Positions 100 to 11,167 of a DNA stretch of 64,000 nt are shown one piece after another; position 1 is the first letter of the stretch, and each line of letters starts with the position of its first letter. The stretch spans positions 2,557,889 through 2,621,888 of the forward strand of contig NZ_LT992558.1 in the NCBI RefSeq assembly GCF_900258435.1, given 5' to 3'. Below the pieces are notes generated by a model, which had not been told where the DNA came from, searched no databases, and saw only the letters and a list, made by a program, of their open reading frames with translations. The position numbers and the translations under genes were made by a program. This stretch comes from Carnobacterium divergens. Its GTDB lineage: Bacteria; Bacillota; Bacilli; Lactobacillales; Carnobacteriaceae.

Positions 100-360
100 T
101 TAGTTGAACCCCCATTCTTGATCGGTTTTCTTAATAGCTTCATGAATTTTTTTAAGATTTTTAACGTCAGTATCAACTCCTGTCTGAAACTCTTGAGTTG
201 CTTTTTTCATATCTGACAGACAAGATTTTAACGTTGTCACTGCTTGACTGTTTGAGTATGAAATGGATTTTTTTAATGAAAAGTTCACTTCTTGAGTCGC
301 TTGAACCATTTCTTTTGATAGACTGGAAACGACTGCTTCATTTGTGGCTATTTTTGTCAT
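100..360 (-). CDS. WXG100-like type VII secretion substrate (TIGR04197-like)
   Basis: An 86-residue, almost wholly helical protein with no signal peptide or membrane segment. It consists of two amphipathic helical stretches (about 5-40 and 45-80) separated near residue 40. Size and pattern match the small helical proteins of type VII (Esx/Yuk) secretion that pair with LXG toxins. The canonical WXG turn is not evident; the SYSNSQ segment occupies that place. The start codon ATG at 360 has the ribosome site AAGGAGC a few bases upstream. The next gene starts 2 bases after its stop. The toxin or carrier gene would lie left of the window. Function is inferred from size and context. Confidence 0.6.
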   Translation of the reverse strand: MTKIATNEAVVSSLSKEMVQATQEVNFSLKKSISYSNSQAVTTLKSCLSDMKKATQEFQTGVDTDVKNLKKIHEAIKKTDQEWGFN

Positions 361-613: not shown

Positions 614-632
614 TGTTATCAAAGTGTTATCA
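614..632. repeat. Left integrase arm-type repeat
   Basis: TGTTATCAAAGTGTTATCA occurs here and again, in the same orientation, at 11149-11167, near the other end of the element. Each copy contains GTTATCA twice. Tn916-like integrases bind such arm sites through their N-terminal domain; that role is inferred. Confidence 0.6.
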
Positions 633-695: not shown

Positions 696-1850
696 TTAAA
701 TATTCAAATGTTTAATAATATCATTTATAACTTTTTCAATTTCATCAAAAGAAACTAAATACCATTCTTTAGGATTTTCAATTTTTCCATTAGCTGTTGG
801 TACAGAGATTTGTATTTGCTTATCTTCAAATCTCTGATGAATAACTGTTTCTAACTTTCGACCACTAAAATTCTGAATTTCCCATGTTGCAACTATCTTT
901 ACAGGAGCATATAAATAAGTAGCTTCATTTTCAGCATTTGCAATCCGTCTTTCAACGTTTCTACTAGCAAAGCCGATCTTATAAAGATTGTGGTATTTTG
1001 ATATTTCTGGATTCAAGCTAAGAGATCGGACTACATAAATATATCCAGTAGTGAAATATTCACTAGCTCTTTCTTCAACGGTTGTTCCCTCCATAACATC
1101 ATCAATTACTTCCGTTACCATTCGACCATGACGAGTTTTGTCAAAGAGATTTGATGCAAATGATCTCAATAAAATCCCTTTGTTTTCAGTTCCGTTTTCA
1201 TAGATAAGATGAAGCTTTGCGTTACGATGACCGTGTTTATCTTCATAAAAATTACTTACTGTTAGAACGTAAAGCAGGATTCCATTATCAATATAAAATT
1301 TTCCCGGTTTAATGTTGTTTTCAGTATCAACAGGAATTATTTTCCGAGTACCATTTGCAATTTCTTTTTGGATAATCTTAAACAGAGGTTCATATCGTTC
1401 GAAATGACTAGCTCGTTTTCGGACACTATATTTATCAGCCGCAATAATTGTTCTCTTATATCTTGACAAGTCAAGCATTGAATCAATTTTATCTTTTTTC
1501 TCGAAAAATGTGTCATCATTGAGAATATCATCAAGAGATTTGGGACTTTTTTTCGAATTTTCTAAAACCTTATTTTGGCTATCAAGCAAGTTAAGTTCAT
1601 CACTCTCAGAGAGCTTCTTTATCATTTCTGGCTTGTCACGATAGCCTTTAAGTCTGGAAAATAATTTTCTTTCTGTCATATCATGCGATCTTTCTGGTTC
1701 TTTTCCATCATGAATTCTTACCCATTCAACAATCTCTTGAAATTTTTCAAATTCTGGGTCAATTCGCTTAACTTGTTTCTTAGGCATTTCAGCTATTAGT
1801 TCGTCAAAAATTGGGTCTAAAAAAATATCATCAAGATTAAGCTTGTCCAT
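696..1850 (-). CDS. GIY-YIG (T5orf172-type) nuclease, third gene of defence operon
   Basis: A 384-residue soluble protein. The C-terminal ~115 residues form a GIY-YIG nuclease domain: GYIYV at 269-273, YKIG at 290-293, arginines at 297 and 301-302, and ETVIHQRF with the probable metal-binding Glu at 334 and His at 338. The N-terminal part carries a short module at about 39-72 (IVEW..IHDGKEPERS..MTERKLFSRL) that resembles the C-terminus of the upstream helicase. The start overlaps the helicase gene by 14 bases, so translation is coupled. The probable role is the DNA-cleaving subunit of a restriction-like system with the upstream helicase and methyltransferase. It resembles what I recall of the Bacillus subtilis yeeABC arrangement; the nuclease role is inferred. 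Confidence 0.78.
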   Translation of the reverse strand: MDKLNLDDIFLDPIFDELIAEMPKKQVKRIDPEFEKFQEIVEWVRIHDGKEPERSHDMTERKLFSRLKGYRDKPEMIKKLSESDELNLLDSQNKVLENSKKSPKSLDDILNDDTFFEKKDKIDSMLDLSRYKRTIIAADKYSVRKRASHFERYEPLFKIIQKEIANGTRKIIPVDTENNIKPGKFYIDNGILLYVLTVSNFYEDKHGHRNAKLHLIYENGTENKGILLRSFASNLFDKTRHGRMVTEVIDDVMEGTTVEERASEYFTTGYIYVVRSLSLNPEISKYHNLYKIGFASRNVERRIANAENEATYLYAPVKIVATWEIQNFSGRKLETVIHQRFEDKQIQISVPTANGKIENPKEWYLVSFDEIEKVINDIIKHLNI

Positions 1851-3768
1851 CTTGTCTCTCTCTCCTTAGTTGTTCCAAACGTAATAAAGCATAAGCTAAT
1901 CTTTGCTCGTATTGATCTGAACTAGACTTATCAGGAATTCTACCATTCTCATTTTTAAATTGAACAATTTGAGGATACAACATAACTAGTTCCTTTTCAG
2001 AAAAAGTGAATTTTATACCATCCATATAATCTTGGATAAAGCGTAAAGTTGGTGCATCAATTTCCTTTGAAATAACCTCATAAGCACGCTGAAAAGGATT
2101 CACTTCATCAATCAAATCAATGGCAATTTCATCAATATTTATAAACTTATTGGCCATTCTAAGAAATTGATTTCCGCTTGTCCCTTCCTCACGTTCAGCA
2201 GACTGAATGACAGCTTGTGAAACTAAATGCTGCCGGACCTCCTCAGTCTCGTTATTTGATAAATCAGGATAGGAACTCATTATCACACGCGGTATTAGTT
2301 GTTTATTAATAACTTTTGCATCGACACCCGCAGCAATAGCTTGCTGAATTTGACTATCTTGTAAAATAGTTGCTTTCAAATCATTCAAATCGTTTTGAAT
2401 AATTTTTTTTGACCGATCAGTACTTGGCTCTTTTAAGCCTTTGATAAATATATCTGTTCCTTTTGATTTTTGGTCATCACTATCTTTACGTTTAAAGTTA
2501 AAGTTTGGAGCTAATACAGATTCCATCAAAAGACTTGCAGTGATAGCCTTCATGACATTATTAACCGCAAACATGACCTCCCCATCTTGAGCATCTGGTT
2601 GAGCAATTAAATTAGTAAATTGTGTATGAGTTTTATTCGAACTATCACGAGTCACACGCCCAATGATTTGTACAACTTCAGTTAATGAATTACGATAGCC
2701 AATTGTTAAAGCATATTCTGCGAAAGGCCAGTCAAACCCCTCTTTTGCCATACCTAGCGCAATGATAATATCCAAGTCATCAAGTTCAGACATATTCCGG
2801 ATATATTCTTGAACTTTTTCACGACCTTCCTCATTGACTAAATCAGCAATTTTTAATACTCGTCCAGATTCTTCAGTTACTAGCCAAACTCCTGTATTTT
2901 CATCAAATTTCGCATCACCTAATTCTTCTAGAATACGGTCGACTTCATCGTATTTATCTTTGGTAGATTCACCGGAATTTACATTTGGAATATGAATAAT
3001 TGTCTTTTTCGTAGTATCTAAAACTTCCGAAAGTGCGTCGGTGTATCGACCTCGATAAAAACTGTAACCCATTGCAAAACTCTTTAAATAGCTATATCCT
3101 TCGAGCTGCTCATAATAAGTATAAGTTACCTTATCAAATTTTTGCTCGTCAACACTCTCCAGAATTGGCACTGAATCCCCTCTAAAGTAGGAGCCCGTCA
3201 TTGCAATAATATGTGCAGAAGAATTTTCCATAATATTACGCATGGTGTTCCCCAGAACAGAGTTATCATCTTGTGATACATGATGAAACTCATCAATGGC
3301 AAGTACTACATTATCAAAGTCTGAATCATTCAATTTATCGAATGCCAAACGTAAAGTTGCGTGGGTGCAAACCATAATATTGTCTTCTAAGTTTGTTGAA
3401 CGAATAAAATTAACAAATTGCGACACTTTACTTTCATTTGTTCCACGATCTGTGAGATTATTTTTTTGACTAATCACCCAATCAGAAAAGAATCCAAATT
3501 TTGCTAGTTTTGTGGTTTGAAAAGATTTTCCAATGGAACGTTCAGGAACTGCAATAATTGCTTTTTTTATGCCTTGATTCGTTAACTTATCCAAAGTCAC
3601 AAACATCAAAGCACGTGATTTCCCTGAGGCTGGGGGAGCTTTAATTAGTAGATATTGTGAAGCTCGCTTTTCATAGACTCGTGCCTGCATTTCACGCATT
3701 CCAAATGAATTTGTAGTTTGACTTTTTCCAGTACTATTATAATTAATTTCGAAAATATTTGATGTCAT
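1837..3768 (-). CDS. DEAD/DEAH-type SF2 helicase of defence operon
   Basis: A 643-residue superfamily 2 helicase. Visible motifs are Walker A APPASGKS (44-51), motif II DEFH (159-162), motif III TGS (191-193) and motif VI QIIGRVTRD (367-375). The region after about 430 is family-specific and helical. The last ~45 residues carry IVQFKNENGRIPDKS...EQRLAYALLRL, which is also seen at the N-terminus of the next gene product. The start codon overlaps the methyltransferase stop by 4 bases (ATGA) and the stop overlaps the GIY-YIG gene, giving a tightly coupled three-gene operon. It probably uses ATP to translocate on unmodified or invading DNA; the exact role is inferred. Confidence 0.85.
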   Translation of the reverse strand: MTSNIFEINYNSTGKSQTTNSFGMREMQARVYEKRASQYLLIKAPPASGKSRALMFVTLDKLTNQGIKKAIIAVPERSIGKSFQTTKLAKFGFFSDWVISQKNNLTDRGTNESKVSQFVNFIRSTNLEDNIMVCTHATLRLAFDKLNDSDFDNVVLAIDEFHHVSQDDNSVLGNTMRNIMENSSAHIIAMTGSYFRGDSVPILESVDEQKFDKVTYTYYEQLEGYSYLKSFAMGYSFYRGRYTDALSEVLDTTKKTIIHIPNVNSGESTKDKYDEVDRILEELGDAKFDENTGVWLVTEESGRVLKIADLVNEEGREKVQEYIRNMSELDDLDIIIALGMAKEGFDWPFAEYALTIGYRNSLTEVVQIIGRVTRDSSNKTHTQFTNLIAQPDAQDGEVMFAVNNVMKAITASLLMESVLAPNFNFKRKDSDDQKSKGTDIFIKGLKEPSTDRSKKIIQNDLNDLKATILQDSQIQQAIAAGVDAKVINKQLIPRVIMSSYPDLSNNETEEVRQHLVSQAVIQSAEREEGTSGNQFLRMANKFINIDEIAIDLIDEVNPFQRAYEVISKEIDAPTLRFIQDYMDGIKFTFSEKELVMLYPQIVQFKNENGRIPDKSSSDQYEQRLAYALLRLEQLRRERQDGQA

Positions 3769-6524
3769 TTTTTCTCCTCATTTATCATTTTTTGATAGAG
3801 CCTCAATAATACACTTAATCGTTCTTCATCCGATTTAAAAGGTTCTTGTTTATAGGCTCGTTCTACAATGCCGTCAATTTTTTTATGTGCTTTTCGTAAT
3901 TTTGTATTCATTGGTTTATTTGCACCACCGTAAAGCTCAGCAAGAGTCCCTCCTTCTTCCTCACGAACATCCAACATCTCTAAAACAGCTTCTTCAATAA
4001 CATTTTTGCGTTGCGTTGAAAGCTTAGGAATTGGGAAAGTATTGTAAACTATACCCGTTGAATAACGATACCTTGTTTCCAATTTTCCACCAACCGCTCT
4101 AAGCCAAGTCATGTGCATACGAGATTCTAAGATACCTAGAAGCCAGATTGGTGCGTCATATAGAACAAATGTTGCATAAGAGGGGATTACTTTCGAGTCA
4201 ATAATTGCAATAGGTAGGTATTCTCTAGCCTCTGAAGAAACTACAGGGATAATAAATCCTTGCCCTTTTTTATATCGAATCTCACCAAATGCATATGGAG
4301 TTTCAGCCTGTTGTTTTGTAACTTCTCTTTTACTACTTAATCTATACATTTTTACTTTTTCAATTCTGCTATTAATAAATGGAATTTTCTGTGCTGTGAA
4401 TAAATTTTCATCCGAAATCCACAAACAATATTTATATGTTCCATTAATTATGTCATCAGCACTGACATATTTTTTGAAGAAATTTTTTGTTTCCGGAATT
4501 TTGGAAACAATGTCTTCATATTCAGATATTGAAAATGTCAAAAAACCATTATCGTAGGCTCCATTTCCTTTTTGCATTTTAGGGAAGCCAGAAAATTGAA
4601 TTGTACTATTTTCAACAAGAACAATGTCACCATAACTTAAATATGGTGTAATATTTGCCACTTCAATACTCTCGCCTTCTGAAAGCAGATATTTACTGTT
4701 GTTTTCTCCTTTTGAAGCTATACCTATAATTGCTACTGTTACACCAGCGTTATTGCTAGCACTATTGCTCCACTTAAAAGAATTATATGCAAAATAAATT
4801 TCTATGTTGTAGGAAAGTAGCTTTTTCCATAAAATTGGAACTTGTTCCCCTTGAGTTATAGAGTTTGTTGTTACAAAAGCAAATTTACTTTTTGTATCTT
4901 CAATAAATTTAACACCAAGTAGAAACCACGCACTAATATAATCAAGTTTTTTAAATGATTTAACTCCATCAAAAATGATGCTCATTTCTTTTTTATTTTC
5001 TTCAGTCTGATTTCTAGATCCTATATAGGGTGGGTTTCCCATAATATAGATTTCATCATTTTTATCATATGCTACAACCTCATTCCAATCTATATGCAAG
5101 GCATTACCTTGCACAATATTTCCTGATTCTTGAAGAGGAAGTATTCTGGGTTGATAGTCAGCTAGTGATTCCATCATTTCTACATTCATTTGATGTTCAG
5201 CAATATAAAGAGACAGTCTTGCTACTTCATGCGCAAAATCGTCAAGCTCAATACCTGAGAATTGGTTTAGCCTTATCTTAGATCGTTTAAGTAAGTCCCC
5301 TTGATAGACATTCTTTTCATTTAAAACTTCATTAATTTCACGAATTTTAACAAGGATTTGAATTTCAAGTCTGCGAAGCTCTTTGTAGGTAATAATCAAG
5401 AAGTTACCCGAACCACAAGCAGGATCTAAGAACTTTATTTTACTCATTTGATCAAGCAAACCATATAGTTGGTTGATGATATCTCGTTGTTTTTCGCGTC
5501 GTTGTTTTTCACTAATATCGCGTTCTTTGTAATCACCTGCACGGTATGAAAGCCTTTTGTACTCTGCCTGAAGACTGTCCAAAAATAAAGGATTAATAAC
5601 TTTCATAATATTAGATACACTTGTGTAATGCATACCTGATACTTGACGTTCTTCTTTATTTGCAACAGTTTGAATCATGGCTCCTAAAATATCAGGATTA
5701 ATTTCATTCCAATTTAACAATTCTCCTGCTTCGATGAGTAGTTTTCGAGTAAAAGCACTAAAATTTAAATCATGGTGTGTTTCTCTAAAAAGGTTACCAT
5801 TAATGTATGGAAATTCTTTTAACCATTCAGGCGTGTCATGTCTTTGATTTTCTGGAATATCTAAAATTAAAAATAATTTTTTTATGACTGAATTTAAATT
5901 GCTTCCATCGCTTTTTGTTCTTGTTTTAAGAATATTAGTAAAAGAACCTTTAGTGATAATTTCTGTATCTTCAGAGAAGTACAAAAAAAGTGAACGAATT
6001 AGAAAAAGATTAAAGGATTTTCCATCAGCTTCTTCTTTTGCAAGTTCAGGGTTAATCTTTACCAACTCATCATAGAGTTTTGTGAAACGCTCAGCAGCTT
6101 TAATATCTGCTGGATTTTCTTTTTGAAAATCTGCTTTCTCGATCCCGTTCCATGCAAGAAAAAACTCGATGGATGTGGGTAAATCTTTAAAATTAATAGC
6201 AAGAGAATCATTCGTCTTTGTATCTTTTGCATAAAGCATTTTAAAATCAGTTGTGATAAGATAACGAGGTTTTTTATTTTGCAATACAATTTCCTTATCA
6301 ATTTCATCAATAGCACATAACGGATCATTTTCAACTTTTCGATAACGAACTTTATTACGTATAAAAAAATCACCTTCACTGGATTTTGCACGTGTGATAC
6401 TTAATTTAGGGATATCAAAAAGTCCTAAAAATTCTTCAATAAAAGTCTCTTTATTCAAATTTTCAATTATTTTTTTTGTAATATTTTCAACTTCAATGAT
6501 AGATAACAAATTTTTATTTAACAT
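3765..6524 (-). CDS. MmeI/YeeA-like DNA adenine methyltransferase
   Basis: A 919-residue N6-adenine methyltransferase of the MmeI-like class. The SAM-binding motif DPACGSGNF is at 367-375 and the catalytic motif NPPY at 497-500. The N-terminal ~200 residues fit the MmeI N-terminal domain fold (a PRYLITTDF strand near 86-94) but show no D...ExK nuclease motif. The region after ~600 corresponds in position to the target-recognition and C-terminal domains. Length suits the family (about 900). It is the first gene of the operon, so the cell is methylated before the helicase and nuclease appear. It should supply sequence recognition and self-marking, with cleavage supplied by the downstream genes. 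Recognition sequence unknown. Confidence 0.85.
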   Translation of the reverse strand: MLNKNLLSIIEVENITKKIIENLNKETFIEEFLGLFDIPKLSITRAKSSEGDFFIRNKVRYRKVENDPLCAIDEIDKEIVLQNKKPRYLITTDFKMLYAKDTKTNDSLAINFKDLPTSIEFFLAWNGIEKADFQKENPADIKAAERFTKLYDELVKINPELAKEEADGKSFNLFLIRSLFLYFSEDTEIITKGSFTNILKTRTKSDGSNLNSVIKKLFLILDIPENQRHDTPEWLKEFPYINGNLFRETHHDLNFSAFTRKLLIEAGELLNWNEINPDILGAMIQTVANKEERQVSGMHYTSVSNIMKVINPLFLDSLQAEYKRLSYRAGDYKERDISEKQRREKQRDIINQLYGLLDQMSKIKFLDPACGSGNFLIITYKELRRLEIQILVKIREINEVLNEKNVYQGDLLKRSKIRLNQFSGIELDDFAHEVARLSLYIAEHQMNVEMMESLADYQPRILPLQESGNIVQGNALHIDWNEVVAYDKNDEIYIMGNPPYIGSRNQTEENKKEMSIIFDGVKSFKKLDYISAWFLLGVKFIEDTKSKFAFVTTNSITQGEQVPILWKKLLSYNIEIYFAYNSFKWSNSASNNAGVTVAIIGIASKGENNSKYLLSEGESIEVANITPYLSYGDIVLVENSTIQFSGFPKMQKGNGAYDNGFLTFSISEYEDIVSKIPETKNFFKKYVSADDIINGTYKYCLWISDENLFTAQKIPFINSRIEKVKMYRLSSKREVTKQQAETPYAFGEIRYKKGQGFIIPVVSSEAREYLPIAIIDSKVIPSYATFVLYDAPIWLLGILESRMHMTWLRAVGGKLETRYRYSTGIVYNTFPIPKLSTQRKNVIEEAVLEMLDVREEEGGTLAELYGGANKPMNTKLRKAHKKIDGIVERAYKQEPFKSDEERLSVLLRLYQKMINEEKK

Positions 6525-6817: not shown

Positions 6818-7222
6818 TTAATTTTTATCTTCAGGAATATTTAAGCTTTCTTTTAAAATTTTAGTCCATGCTCTCTTGATTTCTTCATCAGTCATATTGA
6901 ATCTTTCTTGACCAATCAATAAAATTTGAGAAATATTTTTCACTAACTCTCCTACTAACTCATTAGATTTATCAGATGACATTTTCTTTATATCTTCAAT
7001 ATTTAGATCCAATAAATTAACATCTATATTTCCGAGTAAATAATCTATAGTAGTGTTTAATTCAGTTGCAAGTTCAACAACTTTATCCAGTTCAGGTTCT
7101 CTCTTTCCATTTTCCCAGTTAGTATAAGTTACTCGATTAACACCTACTTTATCAGCTAATACTTGCTGAGTTAACTTTTTTTTTGTTCTCTGTTCCTTTA
7201 GACGCTCTGAAAGTTTTGACAT
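6818..7222 (-). CDS. XRE-family repressor of the mobile element
   Basis: A 134-residue protein with an N-terminal helix-turn-helix of the Cro/CI type at about 5-60 (LKEQRTKKKLTQQVLADKVG, VTYTNWENGKREP). A C-terminal helical part (70-134), probably for dimerisation, lacks the Ser-Lys of self-cleaving repressors. It reads divergently from the replication/integration genes. Three palindromic GTATC-N5-GATAC-like operators fill the gap between them, one inside the promoter spacer of the opposing operon. This is the classic arrangement of a repressor keeping an element quiet. The ribosome site AAAGGAG precedes ATG at 7222. Confidence 0.85.
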   Translation of the reverse strand: MSKLSERLKEQRTKKKLTQQVLADKVGVNRVTYTNWENGKREPELDKVVELATELNTTIDYLLGNIDVNLLDLNIEDIKKMSSDKSNELVGELVKNISQILLIGQERFNMTDEEIKRAWTKILKESLNIPEDKN

Positions 7223-7373: not shown

Positions 7374-7850
7374 ATGTATGAAGCAGAACAAATTGTTTCT
7401 ATGATTGAGGAATTGAACAGTGTGTCCACTTTTCACCGATGGCGGAAGTTAGCAGAGGAATGTTGTGACATTTCTTTTCAGAAGAAAACAAAGCAAGTTG
7501 GTACAACGAGTTATACAAAATATTATTTGTTCTCTGATTCTGATATTGAAAATTTTAGAAAAGTCGCTATTCTTAGGAATAAAGGGCATCCAATCCGAGA
7601 GGCTGTTATTAAAACATTTGAAGTGGTAGCTGTTCCTGATCCATTACCTGAACAAAATAAACAGCTCATTGACAATTTAATACAAGCAGTAGCTGTCATG
7701 AATATTGAGGTGCAGAAATTATTGAAGCTATCAATGAATTATGAGCGTCAATCACACCTTTCTACTCAGAAAGTCTATCAATTAGAACAACAGATACAAG
7801 AACTCGAAGCAGGTAAGATGGATAAACCGTTCCAACGCAAAAAAGCCTGA
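7374..7850 (+). CDS. Putative DNA-binding accessory protein of the element
   Basis: A 158-residue protein with a strong ribosome site (GGAGGTG) before ATG 7374. The N-terminal ~85 residues look like a winged-helix/MerR-like fold (SVSTFHRWRKLAEE ... YYLFSDSDIENFRK ... GHPIREAV). The C-terminus is a coiled coil (about 100-150), suggesting oligomerisation. It is the first gene behind the XRE-controlled promoter and precedes the relaxase/initiator gene, with a hairpin between them. A role in replication, mobilisation or control is likely by position only. I do not recognise a named family with certainty. Confidence 0.6.
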   Translation: MYEAEQIVSMIEELNSVSTFHRWRKLAEECCDISFQKKTKQVGTTSYTKYYLFSDSDIENFRKVAILRNKGHPIREAVIKTFEVVAVPDPLPEQNKQLIDNLIQAVAVMNIEVQKLLKLSMNYERQSHLSTQKVYQLEQQIQELEAGKMDKPFQRKKA

Positions 7851-8019: not shown

Positions 8020-9147
8020 ATGCCTGCACGTTTTTTTAAATTGGAGGTGATAAAATCGAAAAGTAGAGAGTATATCACCGCAAAAATTGATTGGCTTCAA
8101 ATTGTATTCAACTGCTCTATTGAGGAAGTAGTAGAAGCAGTTTTGCGTATTGACCTATCTTGTTTCTTGGTTGAGAATGGGCGAGTTAAACACAAATCTT
8201 ATGATATTTGCTACACGTACGGATCAATCAAGATTTTCACAGAGGAAACACCTAAAACTGGAAATGTTGAATGCTATTTAGTTCTTAGCGGTGATGGCTG
8301 TACAATTTATGAACGCTTGCTACAAGCATTAGATATGAGATGGGCAGATTTTTTTCAACGTTTATTTCGTTTTTATGATGGTCTTTTCCAAGTAAAGCGA
8401 TTAGATATAGCTTTAGATGATAGAAATGAAAAGCCCTACTTTACAGTAAAGCAACTTATTACAAAATGTGAAAAGAAAATGTTCTATTCCAAAAACCGAA
8501 AGCATGATATCTATGAAAGTAGCTTTATAGGAACAATGAAAAGCCGTACTTTATATATAGGCAAACGAAAATCAGACTTAATGTTTCGTATCTATGATAA
8601 AGATATGGAAACTGCGAAACAGAAAAAAAAGGCAGTCGAAGAAATTGGTTCTTGGAAACGTTTAGAATTAGAGCTTAAGCGTGATATGGCACATGTTATG
8701 GCTCAAATGATTGCTTATGAAGGAACGTCATTGGAAGAGTTGGTACGAGGAATTGTAAAAGAAGAACTCACTTTTTATACAGATGATACTTGTAAAAATA
8801 TTTGGCGCCCTTGGGAAAGGTATTTAGGAAATATGGCTCCCATCCATATTCCAAGAACTTATGAAGTTACTGGTTTATTGAACACAGAACAATGGTTAAT
8901 TTTTGGTGGTGGAATGGCAGGTATCAAAGCTTTCCAATTTTTGGCACAAAATAATGCTTTAGGACACTTACAAAATTTGGGCGAAGTAGTAAGTGAAGTA
9001 GAATTTAGCCGACCTCTAGCAAAAAAAATGGCTGACCATTTAACAGATATTGGAAGAACTGACTTAATAGAGGAAGTTTATGAAATGACAAAAAAAGAGA
9101 ACTTAGAAAAGAAATCCAATGAGACTCCCTTGCTAAGCTCCACTTAA
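8020..9147 (+). CDS. Rep_trans-family relaxase/replication initiator
   Basis: A 375-residue protein like the Orf20 relaxase of Tn916 and plasmid rolling-circle initiators (Rep_trans family). It opens with a substrate-domain segment (AKIDWLQIVF). The typical motif pair RLDIALDDR near 126 and FRIYDKDMETA ... RLELELKRD near 190-225 is visible. It should nick the element at its origin to start mobilisation or replication of the excised circle. The start is uncertain: ATG at 8020 gives MPARFFK, but a perfect GGAGGTG lies inside the frame at 8043-8049 with no standard start codon at a good distance, so a rarer start is possible. It is followed by excisionase and integrase genes on the same strand. 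Confidence 0.8.
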   Translation: MPARFFKLEVIKSKSREYITAKIDWLQIVFNCSIEEVVEAVLRIDLSCFLVENGRVKHKSYDICYTYGSIKIFTEETPKTGNVECYLVLSGDGCTIYERLLQALDMRWADFFQRLFRFYDGLFQVKRLDIALDDRNEKPYFTVKQLITKCEKKMFYSKNRKHDIYESSFIGTMKSRTLYIGKRKSDLMFRIYDKDMETAKQKKKAVEEIGSWKRLELELKRDMAHVMAQMIAYEGTSLEELVRGIVKEELTFYTDDTCKNIWRPWERYLGNMAPIHIPRTYEVTGLLNTEQWLIFGGGMAGIKAFQFLAQNNALGHLQNLGEVVSEVEFSRPLAKKMADHLTDIGRTDLIEEVYEMTKKENLEKKSNETPLLSST

Positions 9148-9211: not shown

Positions 9212-9430
9212 TTGATTACCGTTACAAAAGATGATTTGATTAATCTGGGTTTTGGAACAAGCCAGTCACAGACTATTATCCGATTAGCTAAGTACTACAT
9301 GGTTCAGGAAGGCTTTGATTATTACAATAGTCGAAGATTAGGACGGGTACCTGTTCATGCAGTAGAAAGCATTTTAGGGGTAGCTTTATATACACAAAAG
9401 GATGTGAACTTGCATGGCAAATGTGTATAA
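9212..9430 (+). CDS. DUF3173 excisionase-like protein
   Basis: A 72-residue small DNA-binding protein that starts with TTG at 9212 behind GGAGG (9201-9205). Its sequence (TKDDLINLGFGTSQSQTIIR ... YNSRRLGRVPVHAVESILG) fits the DUF3173 family, found just before tyrosine integrases in Gram-positive elements. It resembles a winged helix-turn-helix of the Xis kind. Its 3' end overlaps the integrase start by 17 bases, so the two are coupled. The expected role is to direct the integrase toward excision. Confidence 0.8.
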   Translation: MITVTKDDLINLGFGTSQSQTIIRLAKYYMVQEGFDYYNSRRLGRVPVHAVESILGVALYTQKDVNLHGKCV

Positions 9431-10598
9431 GGATAAGAAAAAAGGCACCTACTATTATGTAGCCAGCTTAGGTTTTGATGATGTCACAGGAAAGAGAATT
9501 CAAAAATTAAAACGTGGCTTTAGGACACGAAAAGAAGCGATACAAGCATACAATGAAATAATGAATGATTATGGTAAGCTTGCTTTTAAAACCAATAGTA
9601 GCATGAGTTACAAGGAATATTTTGAATCCATCTTTCTACCATGGTACAAAGGACGAGTTAAGGAACGAACCTATAACAATCGGTTATCTTCAATGAAACT
9701 TCACTTTCAGCCGTTCTATAGGAAAAAAGTTTCAGCGATTACACCAATTTCAATTCAAAAATGGCAAAATGATTTAACTGGTAAAGTTAGTAATGCTTAT
9801 ATCCGGAATATCTATGGTTTATTTTCTATGAGCCTAGAGCGAGCATATAAATTAGGTATGATTTCTAATAACCCAGCTAAAACAGTAGGAAATGTAAAAA
9901 AGGTTAGGAAAAATGTAGAGTTTTGGACAAAGGAAGAATTTGAACAAATCTTATCTACCCTTGACCTCACAGAATATTATGAACATTTCTCATTTATTGT
10001 TCTATGGCTCTTTTTTATGACAGGTATGCGATTTGGTGAAGGACAAGCCTTACAATGGGAAACAGATATAGATTTTGAAAAACAAACATTGAGAATAGAT
10101 AAATCTATGTTTTATCAAAATGCAACAGAATTTTTCATAACTGAACCTAAAACTCCTGCAAGTAAGCGAGTAATTGCGTTAGATGAAACAACAATCAATT
10201 ATTTAAAAGAGTGGCAGAACGTTCAGCAAGAAATGACTGGTGAATCTATTTATATACTGTCTTATAATGGTTTACCAACGAATAAGCACACAATCCGCCA
10301 TATTATCCAGAGACACTCAAAATTAGCGGAGGTTCACCCTATTAGGATTCATGGATTAAGACATTCCCATGCGTCCCTGCTTATCTCAATGGGTGAAAAT
10401 CCTTTAATTATCAAAGATCGTTTGGGTCATGAAGATATTAAAACAACCTTAGGGACATATGGACATCTATATCCTAACATGAACCGAGAAGTTGCAACAA
10501 AACTTACCCATGTTTTGCAATGGGAGCAAAACGAAACAGTTAAAGAAAAGAAAAAAGCCTTTCAAGGCAATCAATATATCAAGAAAGAAGGAATTTAA
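9414..10598 (+). CDS. int: Tyrosine site-specific integrase
   Basis: A 394-residue Tn916/lambda-type recombinase. The N-terminal arm-binding domain covers residues 1-60 (YKDKKKGTYYYVAS, then FRTRKEA), the SAM-like core-binding domain about 65-165, and the catalytic domain 175-375. Catalytic residues are seen as R in TGMRFGE, the H-x-x-R box in HGLRHSHAS, H in RLGHEDIKTT and the nucleophile Y in LGTYGHLYP. It is the last recombination gene before the right att site, as expected for an element inserted in guaA. The C-terminal tail beyond TKLTHVL is Lys-rich. Confidence 0.95.
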   Translation: MANVYKDKKKGTYYYVASLGFDDVTGKRIQKLKRGFRTRKEAIQAYNEIMNDYGKLAFKTNSSMSYKEYFESIFLPWYKGRVKERTYNNRLSSMKLHFQPFYRKKVSAITPISIQKWQNDLTGKVSNAYIRNIYGLFSMSLERAYKLGMISNNPAKTVGNVKKVRKNVEFWTKEEFEQILSTLDLTEYYEHFSFIVLWLFFMTGMRFGEGQALQWETDIDFEKQTLRIDKSMFYQNATEFFITEPKTPASKRVIALDETTINYLKEWQNVQQEMTGESIYILSYNGLPTNKHTIRHIIQRHSKLAEVHPIRIHGLRHSHASLLISMGENPLIIKDRLGHEDIKTTLGTYGHLYPNMNREVATKLTHVLQWEQNETVKEKKKAFQGNQYIKKEGI

Positions 10599-11148: not shown

Positions 11149-11167
11149 TGTTATCAAAGTGTTATCA
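11149..11167. repeat. Right integrase arm-type repeat
   Basis: Exact second copy of the 19-bp sequence at 614-632, in the same orientation, 58 bases inside the right att core. Confidence 0.6.

What the first reader, a model, noticed from the sequence alone, without database searches (positions are those of the whole stretch)
696..6524. Three-gene methyltransferase-helicase-GIY-YIG system as cargo of a mobilizable element
Seen: an MmeI/YeeA-type methyltransferase, an SF2 helicase and a GIY-YIG (T5orf172-like) nuclease in one overlapping operon (4-base and 14-base overlaps) inside an integrated element. Known: MmeI-type enzymes usually hold nuclease and methylase in one chain without a helicase. 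Inferred: here cleavage and translocation have moved to separate subunits, giving a restriction system of mixed type. This is the best candidate in the window for an under-described defence system.
Basis: partly seen in the sequence, partly recalled or inferred. Interest (0 to 1): 0.72.

Follow-up and report, generated by a model that had tools for sequence, protein, structure and literature searches.

The report
Mobile DnmA–YeeB–YeeC restriction-type operon
A small mobile DNA element carries a three-gene set (a DNA-marking enzyme, a DNA motor and a DNA cutter) that is already known from Bacillus subtilis and occurs in hundreds of species; comparison of relatives suggests it is a working, specificity-swapping defence against foreign DNA rather than the dead relic it has been called.

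Summary
Three genes on the minus strand overlap by 4 and 14 bases: an MmeI-family methyltransferase, an SF2 helicase and a GIY-YIG (T5orf172/MUG113) nuclease. They lie in a 10.5-kb element with a 19-bp direct repeat at each end, a tyrosine integrase and a MobT/Rep_trans relaxase-like gene, next to guaA. The element is absent from that site in a sister species.

The system is not new in kind. It is the DnmA(YeeA)–YeeB–YeeC cluster of B. subtilis. Published work had already noted its missing nuclease motif and suggested a "Type I-like" system. A Vibrio homologue is reported as anti-phage; the B. subtilis copy showed no effect and was called a relic.

New here: (1) none of 68 linked methyltransferases matches a strict MmeI-type nuclease motif. 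(2) YeeC follows YeeB in all 79 readable loci. (3) In near-identical operons the target-recognition domain (TRD) alone is replaced (window versus Filibacter: YeeB 93%, methyltransferase core 85%, TRD 34%). (4) Catalytic residues are invariant and dN/dS is low. This favours an active restriction system whose specificity resides in the methyltransferase; predicted site NNNRAC, A methylated. No activity was measured. Interest is moderate.

The parts
3765..6524 (-). MmeI/DnmA(YeeA)-family gamma-class N6-adenine methyltransferase with target-recognition domain; PD-(D/E)XK nuclease motif absent
   Evidence: Pfam MmeI_N/hel/Mtase/TRD/C; PDB 5hr4 MmeI E 6e-158 from residue 81 on; motifs DPACGSGNF and NPPY intact; no PD-ExK
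1837..3768 (-). YeeB-like SF2 helicase/translocase with helical C-terminal region
   Evidence: Pfam ResIII/DEAD; Walker A PPASGKS, DEFH box and motif VI QIIGR-TRD invariant or nearly so in relatives; SF2 fold matches
696..1850 (-). YeeC-like GIY-YIG (T5orf172/MUG113) nuclease, catalytic domain about residues 269-378, conserved N-terminal region
   Evidence: Pfam MUG113, T5orf172; G269, Y272, K291, G293, R302, E334 fully conserved in 75 sequences
614..632 (.). left end repeat (att) of the element, exact 19-bp direct repeat
11149..11167 (.). right end repeat (att) of the element, 57 bp downstream of the guaA stop
6818..7222 (-). Cro/CI-type HTH regulator (RstR-like); probably regulator of the element
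   Evidence: HTH_3 1.7e-16; RstR model below its cut-off
7374..7850 (+). small element protein with no informative match
8020..9147 (+). Rep_trans / MobT-like rolling-circle relaxase
   Evidence: Rep_trans 2.9e-33; MobT 3.4e-24, below the NCBIfam cut-off
9414..10598 (+). tyrosine integrase
   Evidence: Phage_integrase 2.3e-23 plus arm-binding and SAM-like domains

Best explanation
The operon is a mobile copy of the DnmA-YeeB-YeeC system and works as a three-subunit, ATP-dependent restriction-modification system. The methyltransferase recognises a short asymmetric site through its TRD and marks an adenine in host DNA. At unmethylated sites the same subunit acts as the specificity module for the SF2 helicase YeeB, which moves along or remodels the DNA and brings the GIY-YIG nuclease YeeC to cut it. 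Shown here: gene content and overlaps, loss of the methyltransferase's own nuclease motif, intact active-site residues, near-obligate YeeB-YeeC pairing, and TRD replacement in otherwise near-identical operons. Inferred: complex formation, translocation, cleavage, and an anti-phage or anti-plasmid effect. Predicted from published MmeI contact rules: an NNNRAC-type site, methylated on the A.
For: (1) A strict PD-ExK pattern is matched in 0 of 68 YeeB-associated methyltransferases, while all 5 stand-alone comparators carry E-x-K in that region, so a cutting function must come from elsewhere. (2) YeeC follows YeeB in 79/79 loci with readable downstream sequence; the methyltransferase is directly upstream in 46, and most others have intervening ORFs. 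(3) TRD exchange: in 24 pairs with YeeB identity >=85%, the methyltransferase core averages 86%, YeeC 80% and TRD 43%, against TRD means of 33-38% in the less similar bins; the correlation with YeeB identity is 0.81 for the core and 0.40 for the TRD. Example: L021 (Lapidilactobacillus) versus L022 (Lacticaseibacillus), YeeB 99%, YeeC 95%, core 93%, TRD 37%. The same helicase and nuclease are thus found with different recognition domains. (4) Contact residues switch between the E-R and K-D pairs that specify C or G at position 6 in MmeI (PMC4833311), even between L013 and L015, whose TRDs are otherwise 93% identical. (5) dN/dS is 0.07-0.11 for YeeB and 0.15-0.17 for YeeC. (6) A V. crassostreae homologue affects phage sensitivity (reported in PMC9973331).
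Against: The B. subtilis cluster showed no effect on transformation (PMC7261158) and none against three phages (PMC9973331), and its site is not depleted in phage genomes. No cleavage by any YeeC has been shown in the papers read. The structure models gave only moderate confidence and no Type I-like architecture. No subunit contacts were tested. TRD exchange could also be driven by selection on methylation pattern alone.
Confidence: 0.62

Rival explanations
1. Orphan regulatory methyltransferase with a non-functional relic of an R-M system: the methyltransferase is kept for gene regulation, the helicase and nuclease are decaying passengers.
For: This is the published conclusion for B. subtilis DnmA (PMC9973331): no phage or transformation phenotype, while m6A affects gene expression (PMC7261158).
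Against: In the window and relatives YeeB and YeeC are intact, under purifying selection and catalytically invariant, and YeeC stays next to YeeB in 79/79 readable loci. TRD replacement would destroy a conserved regulatory methylation pattern.
Confidence: 0.12
2. BREX- or DISARM-like exclusion: methylation marks self, and YeeB/YeeC block or degrade replicating phage DNA without site-directed cleavage.
For: Methyltransferase plus helicase logic is shared; weaker profile similarity to DrmMI and PglX.
Against: None of the core BREX/DISARM genes is in the element; a dedicated nuclease with an intact active site is present.
Confidence: 0.15
3. Selfish stabilisation or competition module of mobile elements: the operon mainly protects or retains its element (post-segregational killing or exclusion of rival elements).
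For: It is cargo of an integrated element here; 263 plasmid records carry a YeeB relative, 153 of them over at least 80% of its length; 45 loci come from IMG/VR contigs.
Against: Deletion of dnmA in B. subtilis causes no growth defect (PMC7261158), arguing against a potent addiction effect there. Not exclusive with R-M.
Confidence: 0.1

Closest known systems
DnmA(YeeA)-YeeB-YeeC cluster of Bacillus subtilis (PMC7261158, PMC9973331)
   Same: MmeI-family methyltransferase without PD-ExK, followed by an SF2 helicase and a T5orf172/GIY-YIG protein in one operon, within a horizontally acquired region.
   Different: Here it lies in an apparently complete integrase/relaxase element. The contact pair E-R predicts C at position 6, whereas the DnmA site is GACGAG (G at 6).
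Homologous cluster of Vibrio crassostreae (Piel et al., as cited in PMC9973331)
   Same: Same three genes.
MmeI, Type IIL/IIG restriction-modification enzymes (PMC4833311)
   Same: Methyltransferase, spacer, TRD and C-terminal domains; specificity code for positions 3, 4 and 6.
   Different: MmeI carries its own nuclease (D70, E80, K82) in the same chain; here that motif is missing and a helicase and a separate nuclease are encoded instead.
Type I and Type ISP restriction systems (PMC3874165)
   Same: Working logic: a gamma-methyltransferase/TRD recognises the site and an ATP-driven SF2 motor leads to cleavage.
   Different: No HsdS, no PD-ExK/HsdR fusion and not a single chain; the nuclease is a separate GIY-YIG protein.
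ARMADA, DISARM, BREX
   Same: Combine a methyltransferase with helicase-type ATPases for anti-phage defence.
   Different: Their other core genes are absent here; profile matches to DrmMI and PglX are weak compared with the Type IIG model.

Membership tests
DnmA-YeeB-YeeC cluster | MmeI-family methyltransferase lacking the N-terminal PD-ExK motif | tested here: met
DnmA-YeeB-YeeC cluster | SF2 helicase as first downstream gene and T5orf172/GIY-YIG protein as second | tested here: met
   same order in relatives
DnmA-YeeB-YeeC cluster | Direct sequence homology to the B. subtilis proteins themselves | not tested
   B. subtilis sequences were not retrieved; the B. subtilis control genome has hits to PF20473 and PF10544, which is consistent only
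DnmA-YeeB-YeeC cluster | m6A methylation at a non-palindromic site | not testable with these tools
   Needs methylome data; motif I and NPPY intact
Type IIL/IIG (MmeI) | PD-(D/E)XK nuclease in the same chain | tested here: not met
   Strict motif absent in the window protein and in all 68 YeeB-associated sequences counted; all 5 comparators keep E-x-K
Type I R-M | HsdR (nuclease fused to motor), HsdM and HsdS subunits | tested here: not met
   No HsdS; TRD is inside the methyltransferase; nuclease is a separate GIY-YIG protein
Type I R-M | ATP-dependent translocation and cleavage away from the site | not testable with these tools
   Biochemical property
Type ISP | Nuclease, translocase, methyltransferase and TRD in one polypeptide | tested here: not met
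   Three separate ORFs
BREX / DISARM | Core partner genes beside the methyltransferase (PglZ, BrxC; DrmA, DrmB) | tested here: not met
   The ORFs of at least 80 aa in the element and the Pfam/NCBIfam matches of the main ones include none of them
Integrative mobilizable element | Integrase, relaxase, flanking att repeats, empty site in relatives | tested here: met
   the MobT match is below its curated cut-off, and transfer itself was not tested

The most novel reading that the evidence does not exclude
DnmA-YeeB-YeeC systems form a distinct, widespread and active class of restriction system. A nuclease-less MmeI-type methyltransferase with an exchangeable TRD serves as both modification and specificity subunit for a separate SF2 motor and a separate GIY-YIG nuclease. 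The B. subtilis 'relic' verdict would then be an exception rather than the rule.
Probability: 0.5. Interest if true: 0.58.

Novelty: new member of a known kind. Interest (0 to 1): 0.38.

Why it matters
The best-studied copy of this gene set was judged an inactive relic, and homologues on plasmids are annotated simply as 'DNA methyltransferase', 'DEAD/DEAH box helicase' and 'GIY-YIG nuclease' or as a single Type IIL/IIG enzyme. Recognition domains swapped inside otherwise near-identical operons are what an active restriction system under phage pressure would leave behind, and they give a concrete test. If active, it would be an R-M architecture with recognition, motor and GIY-YIG cutter on three chains, spread on plasmids and small integrative elements.

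Tried and rejected
Single-chain Type IIG reading (PADLOC's best label): rejected because the nuclease motif is absent. DISARM/BREX membership: weak methyltransferase similarity only, no partner genes. Structure searches: the YeeC model (pLDDT 77, pTM 0.37) had no PDB match with E <= 0.001; its partial matches to EF-P/eIF5A-type barrels are not used as evidence. The YeeB model matched SF2 cores generally, with nothing specific to restriction motors among the 50 matches shown. PDB sequence searches of YeeB and YeeC gave nothing useful. The published idea that missing C-terminal stretches inactivate the B. subtilis type could not be tested without those sequences; C-terminal indels do separate long and short YeeB forms among relatives, so a short C-terminus alone need not mean decay. 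The promoter scan was at chance level. Position 3 of the recognition site could not be predicted (residues V761/Y783 fit neither published pair). Morgan et al. 2009 and Piel et al. were not held in the library; their content is cited second-hand.

Full report
Observation. Pfam assigns an MmeI-family methyltransferase (five MmeI domain models), an SF2 helicase (ResIII/DEAD) and a GIY-YIG nuclease of the T5orf172/MUG113 type. The best PDB match of the methyltransferase is MmeI itself, 5hr4, E 6e-158, over residues 81-914.

Mobile element. An exact 19-bp direct repeat lies at 614-632 and 11149-11167. With up to one mismatch it occurs nowhere else in the genome and not in 17 relatives of the family. 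Between the repeats lie the operon, an HTH regulator, a Rep_trans/MobT-like relaxase and a tyrosine integrase. In a sister species guaA and its downstream side (98.5% over the compared flank) is directly followed by the left flank (94.7%), without the element. The operon is therefore cargo of an element of about 10.5 kb inserted downstream of guaA. Transfer was not tested.

The missing nuclease. In MmeI the catalytic residues are D70, E80 and K82 (PMC4833311). I aligned 73 methyltransferases: the window protein, 67 others from loci or plasmids that carry the helicase, and five stand-alone comparators. The comparators keep the E-x-K stretch (for example IDGF...VLIEQKG). A strict PD-ExK pattern is matched in 0 of 68 helicase-associated sequences and 3 of 5 comparators. 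A looser E-x-K pattern is matched in 5 of 68 and 5 of 5. The methyltransferase motifs DPACGSGNF and NPPY are intact.

Distribution and operon structure. The best 80 loci span Firmicutes, Actinobacteria, Bacteroidota, Proteobacteria, other phyla and an archaeal MAG. In all 79 loci with readable downstream sequence the GIY-YIG gene follows the helicase, and in 46 the methyltransferase is directly upstream. In most of the others one or more ORFs stand between methyltransferase and helicase, or the contig ends; those identified are AlbA_2/RecG-like, Fic, RhuM and ORF6N proteins. From memory, such genes also occur inside Type I R-M operons; this was not tested here. YeeB relatives occur in 263 plasmid records and 45 IMG/VR loci.

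Specificity exchange. Compared with Filibacter tadaridae (L013), the window helicase is 93% identical, the nuclease 83%, methyltransferase residues 1-480 85% and the C-terminal part 86%, but the TRD is 34% identical. Sliding identity falls sharply around residues 601-780. Across 60 complete systems TRD identity hardly follows the rest (correlation with helicase identity 0.40, against 0.81 for the methyltransferase core). In the 24 pairs with helicase identity of at least 85% the mean TRD identity is 43%, near the 33-38% found in less similar pairs. These pairs are not independent of each other. The simplest reading is replacement of the recognition domain with helicase and nuclease kept. That is expected if the methyltransferase is the specificity subunit for cleavage, and not expected of a methyltransferase retained for a fixed regulatory pattern.

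Predicted site. MmeI-family rules link residues 806/808 to position 6 (E-R gives C, K-D gives G) and 774/810 to position 4 (A with R gives R) (PMC4833311). The window protein has E816/R818 and A784/R820, hence NNNRAC with the adenine methylated. Positions 1 to 3 are not predicted. In the family both 806/808 classes are common (ER 27, KD or RD 37 of 68). L013 and L015 have TRDs 93% identical but carry K-D and E-R respectively.

Selection and active sites. dN/dS against close relatives is 0.07-0.11 for the helicase and 0.15-0.17 for the nuclease. The nuclease residues G269, Y272, K291, G293, R302 and E334, and the helicase residues of Walker A, the DEFH box and motif VI, are invariant or nearly so. 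Nothing in this copy suggests decay.

What is known. B. subtilis DnmA (YeeA) methylates GACGAG, lacks the MmeI nuclease motif and is followed by YeeB and YeeC. Morgan et al. 2009, as cited in PMC7261158, suggested a Type I-like system. Transformation and three-phage tests in B. subtilis were negative and the authors concluded that the cluster is a relic, while noting a V. crassostreae homologue with a phage phenotype (PMC9973331). They also reported the conserved neighbourhood. The finding is therefore a new, apparently intact and mobile member of a known kind. The TRD-exchange pattern is the part I did not find in the papers read (two of the key papers were not available). It bears on whether the family is active.

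Limits. No protein activity, methylation or phage effect was measured. The B. subtilis and V. crassostreae sequences were not aligned directly, so the assignment to their cluster rests on domain content, the missing motif and gene order.

Noticed in passing
window 100-360 (-): Small DUF3130 / TIGR04197 (type VII secretion-type) protein just outside the left end of the element; its neighbourhood beyond the window was not examined.
   Followed up: no
   Followed up: no
L014:6243-9004 (Ornithinibacillus californiensis): Methyltransferase broken into two ORFs (518 and 392 aa) while helicase and nuclease stay intact; sequencing error or real mutation not resolved.
   Followed up: no
Between methyltransferase and YeeB in L028, L031, L043, L050, L091, L092 and others: Recurrent accessory ORFs (AlbA_2/RecG-like, Fic, RhuM, ORF6N) inserted at the same place in the operon in distant phyla; they may be functional fourth components.
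   Followed up: partly
L013 and L015 methyltransferases: TRDs 93% identical but the position-6 contact pair is K-D in one and E-R in the other, a natural candidate for a single-base specificity switch.
   Followed up: partly
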